NCBI GenBank assembly: GCA_021372575.1
Contig: JAJFUE010000081.1
Coordinates: 1-54,458, forward strand
Length of the DNA stretch: 54,458 nucleotides
DNA from: a bacterium
GTDB lineage: Bacteria; Sumerlaeota; Sumerlaeia; MVZB01
Direction of reading: 5' to 3'
Positions 122-51,528 of this stretch are shown here, in pieces. Each line of letters begins with the position of its first letter. Position 1 is the first letter of the stretch. A model generated the notes under the pieces. The model was not told where the DNA came from, did not search any database, and saw only the letters and a program-made list of their open reading frames with translations. The position numbers and the translations under genes were made by a program.

Positions 122-200
122 TCTCCCATAACTCCCATAACCCCCATAACTCCCATGAGTCCCATGAGTCCCATAGGACCCATAGGTCCCATAAGACCCA
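122..200. repeat. TCCCATAA/TCCCATAG oligonucleotide repeat tract
   Basis: About ten imperfect 8-9 nt units of the form TCCCATAac, TCCCATGag and cCCATAGGt run through this spacer. Related tracts lie at 7771-7806, 22457-22544 and 24838-24882. On the minus strand it would read as a Met-Gly-Pro/Leu repeat, which I take to be non-coding. The rest of positions 1-279 shows no gene. Confidence 0.75.
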
Positions 201-7621: not shown

Positions 7622-7679
7622 GCGTCATGCGGCAGAGCCCCGTACAAGGGACGACACATTACTCCAATGCGAATTGTGT

Positions 7680-7763
7680 CGCCCCTGCCGGGGCTCGAAA
7701 AATATTTGCGCTCGATCCCAGCGCTCACGCGCTGGGCTAACTTGTATCGCCCCTGCCGGGGCT
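7680..7763. repeat. Three-hairpin element, type 2 (84 bp)
   Basis: CGCCCCTGCCGGGGCT at 7680-7695 and again at 7748-7763 bracket a central hairpin CCAGCGCTCACGCGCTGG at 7718-7735, followed by GCTAA. The plan (outer hairpin, spacer, central hairpin ending GGGCT, short spacer, repeat of the outer hairpin) is that of the 83-bp element, with different stem sequences. A partial outer arm, GAGCCCCGTACAAGGGACGACAC, lies just upstream near 7635. Confidence 0.75.
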
Positions 7764-7770
7764 TGTTAAA

Positions 7771-7806
7771 TCCTATCCGTCCTATCTGCCCTATAAGTCC
7801 CATACC
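7771..7806. repeat. TCCTATC/TCCCATA simple-repeat tract
   Basis: Four or five units (TCCTATCCG, TCCTATCTG, CCCTATAAG, TCCCATACC) just beyond the 3' end of the radical SAM gene. It is related to the tract at 122-200. Confidence 0.6.
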
Positions 7807-14830: not shown

Positions 14831-14887
14831 ACTCCGAACAGGAATTCCGGCTCCGATTGCGGTGCGGGCTTTATTAATAAAAATGAG

Positions 14888-14945
14888 AACAGGAGGGAAC
14901 GGAGATAACGGAGAATTTCTCTGTTGCCTCCGTTACCTCCTGTTT
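14888..14945. repeat. AACAGGAGG hairpin repeat, copy 1 (58 nt)
   Basis: The left arm AACAGGAGGGAACGGAG continues with ATAACGGAGAA, and the right arm is TTCTCTGTTGCCTCCGTTACCTCCTGTT, together a near-perfect long palindrome. Sister copies lie at 37073-37134 and 46597-46675. It lies between the converging GT4 and PfkB genes and could act as a bidirectional terminator. Confidence 0.8.
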
Positions 14946-14953
14946 AAAAAAAT

Positions 14954-22435: not shown

Positions 22436-22544
22436 GGAGATGAAAGATGAAAGATTGGGCCTCTGGGTCCTATGGGTCCTATGGGACCTATGGGACCCAT
22501 GGGACTTATGGGATCCAGAGGACACATAGGACCCACAAGACCCA
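22436..22544. repeat. GATGAAA repeat followed by GGTCCTATG repeat tract
   Basis: A short GATGAAAGATGAAAGAT tract (22436-22456) runs into about nine imperfect units GGGTCCTAT / GGGACCTAT / GGGACCCAT / GGGACTTAT (22457-22544). The tract ends exactly at the TGA of sucD. It is the reverse-complement relative of the tract at 122-200. Confidence 0.75.
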
Positions 22545-24599: not shown

Positions 24600-24723
24600 G
24601 TTTTACGCCTGCTTGAGTGAATACGTTACAGATCCTAATGATTCATGTTAAAAGCATTGGCGTGAATGTCAATGTTTAGGATGGGCGCTGAAAAACGATT
24701 TATATTCGCATTCTCGGTTCAAT

Positions 24724-24806
24724 CGTCCCTCCGGGACTTGCGCGTTGACTGGGCTTTTTACCCGCCACTGTCGTGGCGGGCTGAAAGCGACCGTCCCTTC
24801 GGGACT
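24724..24806. repeat. 83-bp three-hairpin element, copy A (intergenic)
   Basis: Hairpin 1 CGTCCCTCCGGGACT, a 20-nt spacer, central hairpin ACCCGCCACTGTCGTGGCGGGCT, then GAAAGCGAC, and hairpin 3 CGTCCCTTCGGGACT. Copies B (38341-38423) and C (48538-48620) have exactly the same length. Copies A and C also share the six bases TTCAAT immediately before hairpin 1. Confidence 0.9.
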
Positions 24807-24837
24807 CTTTCAACGCCCTGTTGAGATGGGCGGGGAG

Positions 24838-37067: not shown

Positions 37068-37072
37068 TTATT

Positions 37073-37134
37073 AAAACAGGAGGCAACGGAGGGAACAGAG
37101 AATTTCTCCGTTCACTCCGTTGCCTCCTGTTTTA
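37073..37134. repeat. AACAGGAGG hairpin repeat, copy 2 (62 nt)
   Basis: AAAACAGGAGGCAACGGAGG with GAACAGAGAA faces TTCTCCGTTCACTCCGTTGCCTCCTGTTTT. It lies between convergent genes, as copy 1 does. Confidence 0.8.
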
Positions 37135-37141
37135 AGGAAAT

Positions 37142-37683: not shown

Positions 37684-38463
37684 CTATAAATCGGGCCAAA
37701 AACCCTGCCGGATGCACTGCGCCGCATCGCGGGCCTCGCGCGCGACCGACCAGAATCCCTTGGCGCGACGACGATCATTCTTCGCCAATTTATCCAATTC
37801 CTCAAGCGCGGACTTGGCCTGCATCGACCCGAGCGCATAACTGCACCAAAACCGCACATCAGCCGACGGATCTTCCAGGCACCTGATTAATCCGCGAGTG
37901 ACTCTTTGACGTGATCCGCGCGAAACCTGTTTGGCGGGGCGCTTGCATACACCTAAGATCATCAGGATCATTCCCAGTGCCTCGGCTGCATGTGCACGCA
38001 CCTGAATGTCATCTTCTTTTGCCAACAAAACTTTCAGCAACGGCTCGACTGCCCGTTCATCGCCGATTCTGCCAAGCGCATACGCGGCGAATTGCCGAGT
38101 GACATTCGCATTCCGGCCGTCGAGCAACCGGATGCACCCGCGTATCGCCAAAGCACCATCCGGAATGTGATTGGCGGCCTCGCAAACGACAATTTCGTCT
38201 GGGTGAGTCAGCAATTTGAGACAGACCGTCACCGCAACGCGCTTGCCCAAAACATTTAATTTTCCAAATTGCCCCGCGATCGATTGATTGCCGTTTTCTA
38301 TGCTTTTGATGATCGCGCGCCTGATTCGAACGGCTTCGACCGTCCCTACGGGACTCGTGAATTTATTGGGTCGTTTACCCGCCACTGGCATGGCGGGCTG
38401 AAAGCTGCCGTCCCTGCGGGACTTTGTTGAAACCCGGTTCAGGCGTTTTAATTGATTCGTCAT
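37684..38463 (-). CDS. HEAT-repeat protein carrying an in-frame 83-bp element
   Basis: 259 aa. Helical repeats run from about residue 75: TRQFAAYALGRIGDERAVEPLLKVLL, VRAHAAEALGMIL, ADVRFWCSYALGSMQAKSALEEL; a protein-binding scaffold is likely, partner unknown. The ATG at 38461-38463 overlaps the lemA stop (ATGA), which supports this start. Codons about 14-41 are the repeat element copy B (SRRDGSFQPAMPVAGK ... SPVGTVEA), read in the same frame as copy C inside the RND pump. If translation began downstream of the element there is no ATG before the HEAT region apart from one within the element itself. Confidence 0.8.
   Translation of the reverse strand: MTNQLKRLNRVSTKSRRDGSFQPAMPVAGKRPNKFTSPVGTVEAVRIRRAIIKSIENGNQSIAGQFGKLNVLGKRVAVTVCLKLLTHPDEIVVCEAANHIPDGALAIRGCIRLLDGRNANVTRQFAAYALGRIGDERAVEPLLKVLLAKEDDIQVRAHAAEALGMILMILGVCKRPAKQVSRGSRQRVTRGLIRCLEDPSADVRFWCSYALGSMQAKSALEELDKLAKNDRRRAKGFWSVAREARDAAQCIRQGFWPDL
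38341..38423. repeat. 83-bp three-hairpin element, copy B (inside the HEAT gene)
   Basis: CGTCCCTACGGGACT, spacer, ACCCGCCACTGGCATGGCGGGCT, GAAAGCTGC, CGTCCCTGCGGGACT. Same length and arrangement as A and C. Read on the minus strand it encodes SRRDG-x2-QPA-x2-VAGK-x6-SP-x-GT-x-E. Confidence 0.9.
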
Positions 38464-46579: not shown

Positions 46580-46596
46580 ATTTAATTTTCAATTGG

Positions 46597-46675
46597 AACA
46601 GGAGGAAACAGAGGCAACAGAGAAATTGTAACGAATATTCTCCGTTATCTCCGTTATCTCCGTTTCCTCCTGTTT
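46597..46675. repeat. AACAGGAGG hairpin repeat, copy 3 (79 nt)
   Basis: AACAGGAGGAAACAGAGG with CAACAGAGAA on the left; ATTCTCCGTTATCTCCGTTATCTCCGTTTCCTCCTGTT on the right, with one additional internal unit on the right arm. Between convergent genes, as are the other two copies. Confidence 0.8.
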
Positions 46676-46682
46676 AAATCCT

Positions 46683-46736: not shown

Positions 46737-47810
46737 TTAAACCGCCGGCACGCCGACCCGCTCACCCGGCGCGAGGCCGCTCAGAATCTCCCGCTGCCCG
46801 TCGCGCCGCGATTCCCCGAGCGTCACGAACCGGCGCTCGAACTGATTCTTCCCCCTATCGACCCACACATACGTCAATTGCCCGACCCTCAATATCGCTT
46901 TCTCCGGAGCATAAATTCGTTTCTCTCTCCCTGTCGGGATCAGCAGCCGCCCGAACATGCCGGGGTAAATATCGCCCCTCTCCGGCAGCGAGACCTTCAC
47001 CAGCATCGACCGTGATCCCGGCTCGGCCTGCGGGACGATCTCCTCGACGCGGCCCTGAACCGTGGTCGTGAGCGCGTCGATCATGACCGCGAGATCGGTG
47101 CCCGGCCGTAATCTCCCGGCCAGCGATTCCCTCACGTAAGCCTCGAGCCGCATCCGCGTCGGGTCATACAACTTCAATATCGGCGTCCCCGGCGTCGCGG
47201 TGTCTCCAGGCTCGGCATATTTATCGACGATCCGCCCGCCGAATGGCGCTTCAATGACGGCGTAACTCGATCCGGCCTGCGCCTCGCCAACGGCTTGCTC
47301 GGTGCGCTGCACCTCGGCGCGCGCGGTTTTATACGCGGCCTCGGCCGTGTCGAACTGGCTGCGCGGAATAATCGATTTATCCACGAGCGACTTCATCCGG
47401 TTATATTCTTTTTCGGCCTCGGAAAGCTTCGCGCGCGCGGAGTTGACCGCCTCCTTCGCCTGCTGTTCGCGCGCGGCGAGATCGCGGCTGTCGAGCCGCG
47501 CCAGCACCTGCCCGCGCTCGACGCGATCTCCCGCCCCGACGTTGATCTCGCCGATCGTCGCCATGATGCGCGGAGAAATCATCGTCTCGCGAATCGCCGA
47601 CAACGTCCCCGGCACGCGCTCGATGACTTGCTCATTGGATTCGGTGACCGGCTGAACAGCGGCCATCCTGGGCGCAACCGATTCCGGCGCTTTCGCCACC
47701 CCCGGCTCGACCTTCGTCTTAAACGCCCCCGCCAGCCACGCCAGCACAAGCCCCATGAGTACGATCCCGACGATCCACAGCAGCAGTTTTGTAATCACCG
47801 AACCCCGCAT
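46737..47810 (-). CDS. RND efflux periplasmic adaptor (membrane fusion protein)
   Basis: 357 aa. One membrane segment (VITKLLLWIVGIVLMGLVLAWL), then a lipoyl/barrel-sandwich half (ISPRIMATIGEINVGAGDRVERGQVLARLDSRDL), a helical hairpin (AREQQAKEAVNSARAKLSEAEKEYNRMKSL), the second lipoyl half (SSYAVIEAPFGGRIVDKYAEPGDTA) and beta-barrel domains. It links the inner-membrane pump to an outer-membrane channel, not seen here. AAGGA lies 7 nt before ATG 47810. A longer frame upstream reads a GTCCAC repeat (KWTEWTMWTN) and is rejected. It follows the pump gene by 34 nt. Confidence 0.92.
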   Translation of the reverse strand: MRGSVITKLLLWIVGIVLMGLVLAWLAGAFKTKVEPGVAKAPESVAPRMAAVQPVTESNEQVIERVPGTLSAIRETMISPRIMATIGEINVGAGDRVERGQVLARLDSRDLAAREQQAKEAVNSARAKLSEAEKEYNRMKSLVDKSIIPRSQFDTAEAAYKTARAEVQRTEQAVGEAQAGSSYAVIEAPFGGRIVDKYAEPGDTATPGTPILKLYDPTRMRLEAYVRESLAGRLRPGTDLAVMIDALTTTVQGRVEEIVPQAEPGSRSMLVKVSLPERGDIYPGMFGRLLIPTGREKRIYAPEKAILRVGQLTYVWVDRGKNQFERRFVTLGESRRDGQREILSGLAPGERVGVPAV

Positions 47811-47827
47811 ATAAAATCCTTTCTCAT

Positions 47828-47870
47828 TGGTCCACATCGTCCACTCAGTCCACTTCGTCCACGTCTTCGT
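47828..47870. repeat. GTCCAC simple repeat at the pump gene 3' end
   Basis: GGTCCACATCGTCCACTCAG, then TCCACTTCGTCCACGTC: five GTCCACNNN units spanning the stop of the pump gene and the spacer. On the coding strand the part inside the gene reads EDVDEVD. Confidence 0.7.
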
Positions 47871-50800
47871 TTTCGCTCGCCCCATGCCCCGGCTTGTTTG
47901 CATAAACCAAATAATACACGACCGGAATCACGCCGAGGGTAAAGATGGTCGAGGCGGCGACGCCGAAGATGATCGACCACGCGAGGCCCGAGAAGATCGG
48001 GTCCAATGTAATGACAATGTTGCCTAGCAGCGCCGTTCCGGCCGTCAGGATAATCGGCCGCGTGCGGATCGCGCCCGACTGGATCAGCGATTCTTCCAGC
48101 GTCAGCCCGCGCTTCAGTCCGCGATGAATGAAATCGACCAGAATGACGGAGTTGCGCACGACAATTCCCGCCAGCGCGATCATCCCGATCATCGCCGTGG
48201 CCGTAAAGAAGATCGGGTTCGGGAATCCCGCCACGACGCGCTCGCCGAACAACCCCAGCAGCCAGAACCCCGGCATGATGCCGATCATCGTGAGCGGAAT
48301 GGCCAATATCATGATCGCCGCGATGAGCGCCGATCCGGTTTGCAGCCACAGGATCAAGTAAATGCCGATGACGGCCGCGCCGAACGCGAGGCCCAGGTCG
48401 CGGAACGCATCGACGGTGATCTTCCACTCGCCTTCCCCAAGCCAGTTGATCGACGTGCCGGCCGGAAGCGTCCACGGAATGCCGCCGCCAGGACGGATGT
48501 AATTACGATTTTCCAATGGAATCTCGCTCGATTCAATCGTCCCTCCGGGACTTGCCTTTTGACCGTGATCCTTACCCGCCACTAACGTGGCGGGCTGAAG
48601 GCGGCCGTCCCTGCGGGACTGATCGGAAACGCGGTCGGCGCCGACGTCGAGCACCACGTCGGCCGGCGCGCGCCCGGCCGTCTCGGCAAACACATACGCG
48701 ACGCGCCGCAGGTTCTTGTGATAGATCGTCTGATCGACCTTGCCCGATTTGAAGCGGCCGATTTCGCCAAGCGGCACCATCGGTTGCGGGGCGTCCTTGA
48801 GCTGCGTCCCGACGCGTGTTTTTGTAATGCCCGCGCGGCCCTTGATGTAGAGCGAAGCAAGCGAATTCGGATCCGAGCGCAACGGGCGCGGCAGGCGTAA
48901 AACGATCGGCAACGGCTGCGCCTCGGTCGGCAGGTTCAACGTGGTCGCCTGCTGGCCGTCGATCGCGAGCGCCAGTGTTTGCGCCACATCCTCCGTGCCG
49001 ACGCCCGAAAGCGCCGCCTTTTCCTTATCCGTTTCAAATAGCAACTTTTCCTGGTCAGCCTCGACGGAGCTGTCCACGTCGCGGACGAGCGGCTCCTCTT
49101 TAAGCCGCGCGGCCGTGGCCAGCGCCGCCTTTTGCAGCGTCTTGTAAGGCGTCTGCGGATCGCCGTAAATCTCGGCCGTCACGGTCGCGATGACCGGCGG
49201 GCCGGGCGGAACCTCGACGAGCTTGATCTTCGCGCCGAGCGGCTCAGCGATTTTTTCGAGATCGCGCCGGATGCGCAAAATGATCTCGTGCGACTGCTGC
49301 GCGCGCTGTTTTTTGCCGACGAGGCTCACGCGCAGGTCGGCGACGTTCCCGCCCGAGCGCATATAGTAATGCCGCACCATGCCGTTGAAATCCATCGGCG
49401 ACGCCGTGCCGATGAACCCGGTGAAATCGACGACCTCCGGAACGGTCCGCAGATATTCGGCCAGCGCGCGCGTCGCAGCCTCGGTCATCTCGAGCGTCGT
49501 CCCCTCGTCCATATCGACGACGATCTGGAACTCGTTCTTGTTGTCGAACGGAAGCATCTTGAGCGGCACGAGCCTGAATGCCGGCAACGCCACGGCCGCG
49601 ATGAACATCAGCCCGATCACAATCAAAAACAGCCACGCGTACGCGCGATTGCGCAGCATCGGCCCGAGCAGCGCATTATAGATTCTATAAAGCGCGGTTC
49701 GCTTCACATCGTATTCAACGTGTCCGCCGTGGCCGTCGCGTTTCAAAATCACGCGCGCCAAAAACGGCGTCACGCAGAACGCGACGATCAGGCTCATGCC
49801 GATCGTAATCGGCACGTTGAGCGCCATCGGCCGCATGTAAGGCCCCATCATCCCCGTGATGAAAAACATCGGGATGAACGAAATGATCACGGCGATCGTC
49901 GCCAAAATCAATGCCGGGCGGATTTCCTGCACCGCAAGCAGGATCGCGCGTCGCGGCGACCATTTTCGCATCCGGTAAAACCGCTCGATATTCTCAACGT
50001 CCGTGATCGGGTCATCGACCAATAATCCTAATGCTAATATGAGTGCGAATAACGTAACGCGATTGATCGTGTATCCCGATATTAAATTAATCAGCAACGT
50101 CGCGCCGTAGCAGACCGGAACGGCGAGCGCGATGACCAGCGCCGCGCGCCAGCCAAGGACCAGGCCCACGAAAATGACGACGGTCAGGATCGCCACGCCG
50201 AGCCCCTCGACAAGGTCGTTGACCTTTTCATTCGCGGTCTCGCCGTAGTCGCGCGTAATGGTATAATGCACGTTTGGCGGCACCAAACCACTCGCGGCGC
50301 GTTCCAGCCTTCGCTCGACGTCGCGCGCCACCCACACCGCGTTCGTCCCCTTCTGCTTCGCGATCGCAATCGAAACCGCCGGAAGAAAATGAGCGCTTTT
50401 ATTGTCCGACGCCGGCCCGAACCCGATCCACGTGTAGGTGCGCGCCTCGTCCGGCCCGTCGATCACGCGCGCCACGTCCTTTAAATAAACAGGAATTCCA
50501 TCCACAACATTGACGACGAGATTTTCGAGATCGCGCACGCCGGCGATGAACGAGCCGCCTTCGACGACGATCGCGCGGTCGGCCTGGTCGATCCCGCCCG
50601 CCGGCAGTTGCACGTTGTGAACCCCCAGCGCCCACGCGACGTCGAGCGGCGAAGTGCGGCGCGCGGCCAGCGCATCGGGCATCAATTCAACACGCACGGC
50701 ACGCGGACGGCCGCCGACCACCGTGATACGGTTCGTGTTCGGCACGCTCTGCAGGTCGGTCACGAGCTCCTCGGCGATGCGGCGCAGCTCATGGTCGTCG

Positions 50801-51291
50801 GCGCGCCGCGGATCGTCGCTCCACAACGTCGCGATCACGATCGGCACGTCGTCGATCTCGATCGGCTTGACGACCCACGCCTTCACGTACGGCGGCACCT
50901 GGTCCACATTGGAATTAATTTTATTATAAATTTTAACGAGGCTGGCCGTGCGATCCTGCCCGACGTAAAAACGCACGGTCACGATCGCCGCGCCCTCGCG
51001 CGACATCGAATAGACGTATTCGACGCCGTCGATCTGCGACAGCAGCTTTTCGAGCGGCGTGGCGACCTGGCGCTCGACCTGCTCGGCGGAAAGCCCGGGA
51101 GCGCTCACGAGAACATCCGCCAGCGGGACAACGATCTGCGGCTCCTCCTCGCGCGGCGTGAGCCACAGCGCGACCACCCCGGCCATCAGCGTGCCGATGA
51201 TGAGAATGATCGGCAGCGGCCCCTGCAGGAACAGCGAAACGATCTTCGAACTGAGTCCCAGTTCCTCGACTTCTTCGGACTCGGTCGTCAT
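47845..51291 (-). CDS. RND-family efflux pump permease carrying an in-frame 83-bp element
   Basis: 1148 aa. RND landmarks: N-terminal membrane segment IILIIGTLMAGVVALWL, porter loop PGLSAEQVERQVATPLEKLLSQIDGVEYV, TM4 LILALGLLVDDPITDVENIERF with paired acidic residues for proton relay, and C-terminal TM helices (MIGMIALAGIVVRNSVILVDFIHRG). It exports drugs, metals or lipids using the proton gradient. Residues about 891-918 (SRRDGRLQPATLVAGK ... SPGGTIES), in a periplasmic loop before the second membrane half, are encoded by repeat element copy C. The last residues (EDVDEVD) come from a GTCCAC repeat. AAGGAG is 9 nt before ATG 51291; GTG 51294 is an alternative. Confidence 0.93.
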   Translation of the reverse strand: MTTESEEVEELGLSSKIVSLFLQGPLPIILIIGTLMAGVVALWLTPREEEPQIVVPLADVLVSAPGLSAEQVERQVATPLEKLLSQIDGVEYVYSMSREGAAIVTVRFYVGQDRTASLVKIYNKINSNVDQVPPYVKAWVVKPIEIDDVPIVIATLWSDDPRRADDHELRRIAEELVTDLQSVPNTNRITVVGGRPRAVRVELMPDALAARRTSPLDVAWALGVHNVQLPAGGIDQADRAIVVEGGSFIAGVRDLENLVVNVVDGIPVYLKDVARVIDGPDEARTYTWIGFGPASDNKSAHFLPAVSIAIAKQKGTNAVWVARDVERRLERAASGLVPPNVHYTITRDYGETANEKVNDLVEGLGVAILTVVIFVGLVLGWRAALVIALAVPVCYGATLLINLISGYTINRVTLFALILALGLLVDDPITDVENIERFYRMRKWSPRRAILLAVQEIRPALILATIAVIISFIPMFFITGMMGPYMRPMALNVPITIGMSLIVAFCVTPFLARVILKRDGHGGHVEYDVKRTALYRIYNALLGPMLRNRAYAWLFLIVIGLMFIAAVALPAFRLVPLKMLPFDNKNEFQIVVDMDEGTTLEMTEAATRALAEYLRTVPEVVDFTGFIGTASPMDFNGMVRHYYMRSGGNVADLRVSLVGKKQRAQQSHEIILRIRRDLEKIAEPLGAKIKLVEVPPGPPVIATVTAEIYGDPQTPYKTLQKAALATAARLKEEPLVRDVDSSVEADQEKLLFETDKEKAALSGVGTEDVAQTLALAIDGQQATTLNLPTEAQPLPIVLRLPRPLRSDPNSLASLYIKGRAGITKTRVGTQLKDAPQPMVPLGEIGRFKSGKVDQTIYHKNLRRVAYVFAETAGRAPADVVLDVGADRVSDQSRRDGRLQPATLVAGKDHGQKASPGGTIESSEIPLENRNYIRPGGGIPWTLPAGTSINWLGEGEWKITVDAFRDLGLAFGAAVIGIYLILWLQTGSALIAAIMILAIPLTMIGIMPGFWLLGLFGERVVAGFPNPIFFTATAMIGMIALAGIVVRNSVILVDFIHRGLKRGLTLEESLIQSGAIRTRPIILTAGTALLGNIVITLDPIFSGLAWSIIFGVAASTIFTLGVIPVVYYLVYANKPGHGASENEDVDEVD
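48538..48620. repeat. 83-bp three-hairpin element, copy C (inside the RND pump gene)
   Basis: CGTCCCTCCGGGACT, spacer, ACCCGCCACTAACGTGGCGGGCT, GAAGGCGGC, CGTCCCTGCGGGACT. It leaves the 1148-codon frame open. Read on the minus strand it gives SRRDGRLQPATLVAGKDHG and then QKASPGGTIE. Confidence 0.92.
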
Positions 51292-51528
51292 CACCCGGCA
51301 CTCCTTGATACGAACCTTGTATAGACCTCAACCATTGTCGCCGAAGATTCGGCGATTTTGCAAGTTCGTCGAATCGGGAACGATAACCTGACAAACAAAT
51401 AATGCAAAACACGAAAGTCACGAAAGGGAGCACGAAAATTCACAAAAAGTGGCTGCCCACCATAAATTGATTTTTTTCGTGATATTTCGTGTTTTTATTT
51501 TCGTGTTTTTCGTGTTTAAAAATTCGAT
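51292..51528. other. Spacer with CACGAAA inverted repeat
   Basis: No gene. From 51406 to 51518 AACACGAAAGTCACGAAAGG and further CACGAAA units face TTTTTCGTGATATTTCGTG and TTTCGTGTTTTTCGTGTTT, an imperfect inverted repeat of CACGAAA/TTTCGTG units around a unique centre. Confidence 0.6.

What the first reader, a model, noticed from the sequence alone, without database searches (positions are those of the whole stretch)
48538..48620. Repeat element spliced into a periplasmic loop of the RND pump without breaking the frame
Residues about 891-918 of the pump are element sequence, and the flanks (GRAPADVVLDVGADRV before, YIRPGGGIPWTLPAGTS after) look like normal RND porter-loop sequence. An 83-bp insertion alone would shift the frame, so a short target duplication or additional flanking bases must have restored it; TTCAAT before hairpin 1 is shared with copy A.
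Basis: partly seen in the sequence, partly recalled or inferred. Interest (0 to 1): 0.7.

Follow-up and report, generated by a model that had tools for sequence, protein, structure and literature searches.

The report
Hairpin repeat inside efflux-pump gene loop
A short mobile hairpin repeat, catalogued until now as a small RNA of unknown role, has landed inside a bacterial efflux-pump gene without breaking it and adds about 28 amino acids to a floppy loop; such in-frame inserts are known from other bacteria, but here the repeat can also be tied to a group of transposases whose partner repeats were missing.

Summary
Confirmed. The repeat core is exactly 48538-48620 (83 nt), one of about 40 close copies in this Candidatus Sumerlaeota genome, and scores as Rfam Acido-Lenti-1 (RF01687, ~120 matches genome-wide). 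It lies in frame in a full-length RND permease (47845-51294, minus) and encodes residues 892-919. The loop that holds it is 84 residues here against a median of 57 in 92 sequences, so 27-29 residues (81-87 nt) are extra. AlphaFold2 gives pLDDT below 50 for 893-916 and 918-920, between a confident helix and strand. No target duplication is present; 83 nt plus one or four edge bases keeps the frame. The same element sits in frame, in the same antisense reading frame, in an MrfA-like helicase, and in another frame in a YfhO-like protein of the same genome, also in variable loops. The element is larger than the Rfam model: matched outer hairpins flank the central one, and paired inverted copies flank IS200-like Y1 transposase genes (YxxxQxxHH signature) in several genera. 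Best reading: a non-autonomous palindromic element, probably moved by those transposases, tolerated as a disordered loop. In-frame palindromic inserts are known (Rickettsia RPEs, intragenic REPs); the transposase link appears new.

The parts
47845..51294 (-). RND efflux permease (AcrB/AcrD/AcrF family, PF00873), 1149 aa, host of the insertion
   Evidence: ORF; Pfam PF00873 E=1.5e-147; homologues at 47-65% identity; fold matches AcrB/AcrD/CusA structures
48538..48620 (+). Core of the palindromic element: 5' hairpin, central hairpin, 3' hairpin; read antisense as pump residues 892-919 (SRRDGRLQPATLVAGKDHGQKASPGGT plus edge codons)
   Evidence: AlphaFold2 pLDDT <50 for 893-916 and 918-920
48538..48552 (+). 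5' outer hairpin CGTCCC-TCC-GGGACT
   Evidence: sequence; in most copies its stem is identical to that of the 3' outer hairpin
48575..48620 (+). Rfam Acido-Lenti-1 (RF01687) match: central hairpin plus 3' hairpin
   Evidence: 46.0 bits, gathering 37, E=2.7e-7
48532..48629 (+). Probable full extent of the short ('core-only') element including edges resembling TTCAAY...GGTTGAA; edges uncertain
   Evidence: alignment of 41 copies; boundary is inference
24718..24825 (+). Second copy of the same family; longer MITE-like version with inverted termini GGGCGCTGAAAAACG...TTTCAACGCCC
38335..38442 (+). Third copy; open in the same antisense frame at the N-terminal part of a 400-codon minus-strand open frame (KSRRDGSFQPAMPVAG...); may be 5' leader rather than coding
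7674..7771 (+). Copy of a sister subfamily with GCCCC outer hairpins and an Acido-Lenti-1 centre

Best explanation
The insert is a copy of a dispersed, non-autonomous palindromic element: a REPIN/MITE-like unit of about 85-95 nt with three hairpins, whose central and 3' hairpins are the Rfam 'Acido-Lenti-1' motif. It jumped antisense into the loop between a helix and the last strand of the pump's porter domain, just before the following transmembrane helix. Its net length was a multiple of three, and the antisense frame used is free of stops in most copies. The pump therefore gained a disordered loop segment of about 28 residues that does not disturb the fold. Shown here: repeat identity, frame, extra length against homologues, predicted disorder, two further in-frame cases in unrelated proteins, and flanking of Y1 transposase genes by paired inverted copies. 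Inferred: that those IS200-like Y1 transposases (YxxxQxxHH type) move the element; that the pump still works; that the insert is neutral.
For: The RND loop is 84 residues here against a median of 57 (modal 55-57) in 92 sequences, this one included. The flanking residues DVGAD and IPLENRNY match homologues such as L019 'ADKGRTEAVDIPLEGRNY'. pLDDT falls below 50 over the element-coded stretch, with a confident helix 877-886 and strand 947-950 on either side. In the same genome the element is also in frame in an MrfA-like helicase (C83; KSRRDDRFQPATSVAGMDRNHTASPGGTAES, same frame) and in a YfhO-like membrane protein (C65; the Pfam YfhO match is below its cut-off), in loops that vary in homologues. 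The 5' and 3' outer hairpin stems agree within copies: 35 GCCCC, 26 GTCCC and 3 GCGCT, against about 8 mixed. Nine of 43 Y1 transposase loci have Acido-Lenti-1 close by, several in inverted orientation on both sides. All nine carry the YxxxQxxHH signature (9 of 25 such loci), against 0 of 18 loci without it or unclassified.
Against: No near-identical empty site: the closest relative, G002 (75% identity), has a contig that ends before the loop. Edges can only be placed to within several bases. Low pLDDT also reflects the lack of aligned sequence there. A sister class of copies carries separate TIRs (CAGGGTGTTGAAA) with TA at the ends, so a second transposase may also move the family. No expression or peptide evidence. 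The element's open frames are no more frequent than in shuffles (3.42 against 3.46), so nothing shows that it is built to be translated.
Confidence: 0.82

Rival explanations
1. The hairpins act as RNA: either an sRNA (as Rfam classifies Acido-Lenti-1) transcribed across the pump gene, or mRNA hairpins that tune its expression; the coding outcome is incidental.
For: Rfam types the family as sRNA and Weinberg et al. 2010 rated it a likely RNA. REPs are often transcribed (PMC3733652).
Against: About 120 matches per genome in several subfamilies, on either strand, and copies flanking transposase genes fit mobile DNA rather than a conserved RNA gene. No transcript evidence was available.
Confidence: 0.08
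2. The insert was kept because the added loop is useful to the pump (exaptation).
For: The frame is intact and the loop lies in the porter domain; the same loop varies across RND relatives.
Against: Predicted disordered; the peptide is what most copies would encode in that frame; loops in L030, L016 and L023 carry unrelated repeat DNA, which points to tolerance rather than a selected sequence.
Confidence: 0.08
3. The gene is decaying and the insert is tolerated because the pump is no longer needed.
For: Insertion in a coding gene; the genome has many other RND-type matches (19 matches).
Against: No stops or frameshifts over 1149 codons; conserved columns retained; confident AcrB-like fold; an intact ORF that reads like an RND adaptor lies immediately downstream (46737-47903).
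Confidence: 0.07
4. Assembly error: a repeat copy stitched into the pump gene.
For: Metagenome-type assembly of 214 contigs; repeats cause mis-joins.
Against: This copy is unique: the best other copy is 86% identical. Both flanks are the same gene in the same frame in the expected order. Two more in-frame cases occur on other contigs.
Confidence: 0.03

Closest known systems
Rickettsia palindromic elements (RPE-1 and relatives)
   Same: Short palindromic repeats inserted in frame in many unrelated protein genes, adding tens of residues (PMC2229807, PMC10969869).
   Different: RPEs are 105-150 bp; sequences were not compared and the host phylum is unrelated; only three well-supported cases found here in one genome; here a candidate transposase is adjacent to some copies.
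Intragenic REPs / REPINs (GTAG and CGTC families) with RAYT genes
   Same: Hairpin pairs, high copy, some inside genes encoding 20-30 residues; transposase genes flanked by the repeats (PMC3733652).
   Different: No unpaired GTAG or CGTC tag. The nearby transposases pass NCBIfam IS200 (NF033573); the RAYT model NF047646 matches one of five tested, far below its cut-off (20.5 against 80). Outer hairpins are in direct order around a third hairpin.
Acido-Lenti-1 RNA motif (Rfam RF01687)
   Same: Central and 3' hairpin of the element match above the gathering score.
   Different: Published as a structured RNA of unknown role; here it is part of a larger dispersed unit next to transposase genes.
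TnpA-Y1 subclass 1.2 proteins (Quentin et al. 2018, PMC6006769)
   Same: Transposases beside the element share WQ and YxxxQxxHH, small size and low copy number.
   Different: The published survey lists no REP-like partner for subclass 1.2 and mostly Cyanobacteria and Bacteroidetes hosts; here the hosts are Sumerlaeota and repeats flank the genes.

Membership tests
Acido-Lenti-1 (RF01687) | Score above Rfam gathering cut-off over the full 46-nt model | tested here: met
   46.0 bits against 37, positions 1-46
Acido-Lenti-1 (RF01687) | Acts as a transcribed RNA | not testable with these tools
   no transcript data
RPE-like in-frame palindromic element (works like) | Palindromic repeat inserted in frame in more than one unrelated conserved gene | tested here: met
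   RND pump, MrfA-like helicase, YfhO-like protein
RPE family proper | Sequence homology to Rickettsia RPE families | not tested
   no RPE sequences were compared
GTAG or CGTC REP | Unpaired GTAG or CGTC tag at one end of the hairpin | tested here: not met
   hairpins begin CGTCCC but the GTC is part of the stem
RAYT (TnpA-REP) system | Flanking transposase matches the RAYT model / Y..NP motif | tested here: not met
   NF033573 IS200 passes in all five tested; NF047646 matches one of them at 20.5 against cut-off 80; motif YxxxQxxHH
TnpA-Y1 subclass 1.2 (for the flanking transposases) | Y---Q--HH motif with WQ and HuH | tested here: met
   all nine element-flanked genes carry Y[IV]xxQxxHH; sequences; signature from PMC6006769; no tree was built
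Y1-transposase-linked repeat (works like REPtron/TIRtron) | Y1 transposase genes flanked by inverted copies of the repeat | tested here: met
   L072, L286, L287, L294, L295 both sides; L071, L074, L300, L303 adjacent
Y1-transposase-linked repeat (works like REPtron/TIRtron) | Transposase cleaves or moves the repeat | not testable with these tools
   needs biochemistry
Classical MITE | Target-site duplication at this insertion | tested here: not met
   longest shared flank word 4 nt, reached by 70% of shuffles

The most novel reading that the evidence does not exclude
Acido-Lenti-1, filed as a small RNA, is really the mobile DNA partner of subclass 1.2 Y1 transposases (a subclass reported to lack any repeat partner), and as it spreads in Sumerlaeota it repeatedly adds disordered peptides of about 28 residues to variable loops of conserved proteins.
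Probability: 0.55. Interest if true: 0.62.

Novelty: new variant of a known kind. Interest (0 to 1): 0.5.

Why it matters
It gives a testable identity to an orphan Rfam family (mobile DNA rather than RNA), supplies a candidate repeat for an orphan transposase subclass, and extends the Rickettsia-type phenomenon of in-frame palindromic inserts to a distant phylum, where it shows how repeats lengthen variable loops of proteins.

Tried and rejected
A target-site duplication as frame repair: rejected. The element being built to be translated: open frames equal shuffles, rejected. GTAG/CGTC REP membership and canonical RAYT: not met. The copies at 38335, C142, C171 and C82 as further coding inserts: they lie near N-termini where the start codon may be downstream, so not counted. 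C36, C164, C208, C87 and C135 open frames look spurious. A direct empty site in the nearest relative: G002's contig ends before the loop. A background Rfam scan of non-transposase loci was over the size limit; I used genome-wide counts instead.

Full report
What is there. The 83-nt core CGTCCCTCCGGGACT...CCCGCCACTAACGTGGCGGG...CCGTCCCTGCGGGACT lies at exactly 48538-48620. It is inside the minus-strand ORF 47845-51294, an RND permease of 1149 aa (Pfam PF00873, E=1.5e-147). Blastn finds 40 places in the same genome (4.63 Mb, 214 contigs); the best other copy is 86% identical. Rfam RF01687, Acido-Lenti-1, matches the last 46 nt at 46.0 bits, and the genome has about 120 such matches. The relatives in its class are Candidatus Sumerlaeota records (contig lengths agree), so the host is placed there by inference.

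Does it lengthen the protein? In 92 sequences (this one included, a few records twice) the stretch from G[RK]xP[AG] to EGEW has a median of 57 residues, most often 55-57; here it is 84. The excess is 27-29 residues, 81-87 nt. The flanks align: L019 reads ADKGRTEAVDIPLEGRNY where this pump reads ADRVSDQ...TIESSEIPLENRNY. The nearest relative, G002 (75% identity), has a contig that stops before the loop, so no close empty site could be read. Homologues with equally long loops exist (L030, 85; L201, 82). In L030 the extra DNA is a tandem array of GTCCANNNC-like units, and L016 and L023 carry GGACAAGTC-type units, so the loop seems to accept repeat DNA repeatedly.

Frame. The longest direct word shared by the 30-nt flanks is 4 nt, reached by 70% of shuffles. 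A net insert of 84 or 87 nt, i.e. core plus edge bases, fits both homologue length and frame. In 36 copies the antisense frame used here is open in 30, but the mean number of open frames (3.42) equals dinucleotide shuffles (3.46 +/- 0.17). The element is therefore not specially coding; it happens to be passable.

Structure. AlphaFold2 with 36 sequences gives mean pLDDT 85.9. Segments below 50 include 893-916 and 918-920, almost exactly the element-coded residues 892-919, between helix 877-886 and strand 947-950. The fold matches AcrB, AcrD and CusA. The insert is best seen as a floppy loop in the porter domain just before the next transmembrane helix (956-986 in the model). Low confidence is partly due to the absence of aligned sequence.

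Not an isolated case. Of 112 copies examined, 48 lie in open frames of at least 120 codons in some frame, but most are spurious or N-terminal. Two more hold up against homologues: an MrfA-like helicase (DEAD, Helicase_C, MZB), where the same antisense frame gives KSRRDDRFQPATSVAGMDRNHTASPGGTAES, and a YfhO-like membrane protein (Pfam match below cut-off), where the sense frame of a 5'-truncated longer version is read. Both sit in loops that vary among relatives. In a distant relative of the latter (L276) the same loop holds a different palindrome, ACCACAGAGGCACAGAG...CTCTGTGCCTCTGTG.

What the element is. Two classes of copy exist: core-only copies with edges like TTCAAY...GGTTGAA, to which the pump and helicase copies belong, and longer copies with inverted termini CAGGGTGTTGAAA and flanking TA (28 matches, control 0). 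The outer hairpins agree within copies: 35 GCCCC pairs, 26 GTCCC, 3 GCGCT, about 8 mixed. The unit is thus larger than the Rfam model and its two ends evolve together, as expected if a protein recognises them.

Likely mobiliser. The genome has 13 Y1_Tnp matches. One (C111:34768) is flanked on both sides by inverted GTCCC-type units, and two more have Acido-Lenti-1 next to them. In 14 relatives with 48 Y1 matches, 30 loci were scanned: L286, L287, L294 and L295 are flanked on both sides in inverted orientation; L300 and L303 have adjacent copies. The 19 matches in about 88 kb compare with roughly 0.5 expected from the genome-wide counts (my arithmetic; thresholds differ slightly). All nine loci with the element carry YxxxQxxHH, out of 25 such loci; 0 of 18 others do (hypergeometric about 0.004, my arithmetic). 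That motif, with WQ, is the published signature of TnpA-Y1 subclass 1.2, for which no repeat partner is listed (PMC6006769). NCBIfam calls all five tested IS200-like; the RAYT model matches only one of them, far under its cut-off. That the transposase moves the element is inference.

Relation to known systems. In-frame palindromic inserts are known: RPEs in Rickettsia, with an RPE-containing guanylate kinase shown to be active (review PMC2229807), and intragenic REPs encoding 20-30 residues, including in repair genes (PMC3733652). It works like these. It is not a GTAG or CGTC REP, and the transposase is not a canonical RAYT. Searches of the open literature held here found no paper linking Acido-Lenti-1 to transposases; subscription papers were not searched.

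Verdict. The finding is real and correctly placed; the target-duplication idea fails. In-frame insertion is a new instance of a known kind; the Acido-Lenti-1 / subclass 1.2 link is the more novel part and needs biochemical proof.

Noticed in passing
window 38335-38442 and the minus-strand open frame around it: Third copy is open in the same antisense frame as the pump copy near the N-terminus of an open frame (KSRRDGSFQPAMPVAGKRPNKFTSPVGTVEA); could be leader or coding.
   Followed up: partly
window 7674-7771: Sister subfamily copy with GCCCC outer hairpins around an Acido-Lenti-1 centre.
   Followed up: partly
window 143-198 / 22457-22512, and 14887-14948 / 37071-37135 / 46592-46679: Two further families of short tandem or inverted repeats (CCCATAGGT-type and TCTCCGTTACCTCCG-type units) spread through the window.
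   Followed up: no
L276 (relative of the YfhO-like protein), loop FFIESLFHHRGTEARRTE...CLCVPVVKRCW: A different long palindrome (ACCACAGAGGCACAGAG...CTCTGTGCCTCTGTGTCCCTGTGGT) sits in frame in the same loop as the Acido-Lenti-1 insert of the own-genome homologue.
   Followed up: partly
G000, 28 sites of CAGGGTGTTGAAAAA with up to one mismatch: A longer version of the element has TIRs with TA at the ends; C33:1725, C42:64637 and C167:6354 carry the TIR at places not among the listed core copies, so a second element or IS may share it.
   Followed up: no
L080 983-1187 and L079 467-658: A cobalamin riboswitch and a group II intron match lie near two other Y1 transposase genes.
   Followed up: no
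L016, L023, L030, L248: Variable loops of RND and helicase homologues encode period-9 tandem repeats, suggesting recurrent growth of the same loops by repeat DNA.
   Followed up: partly
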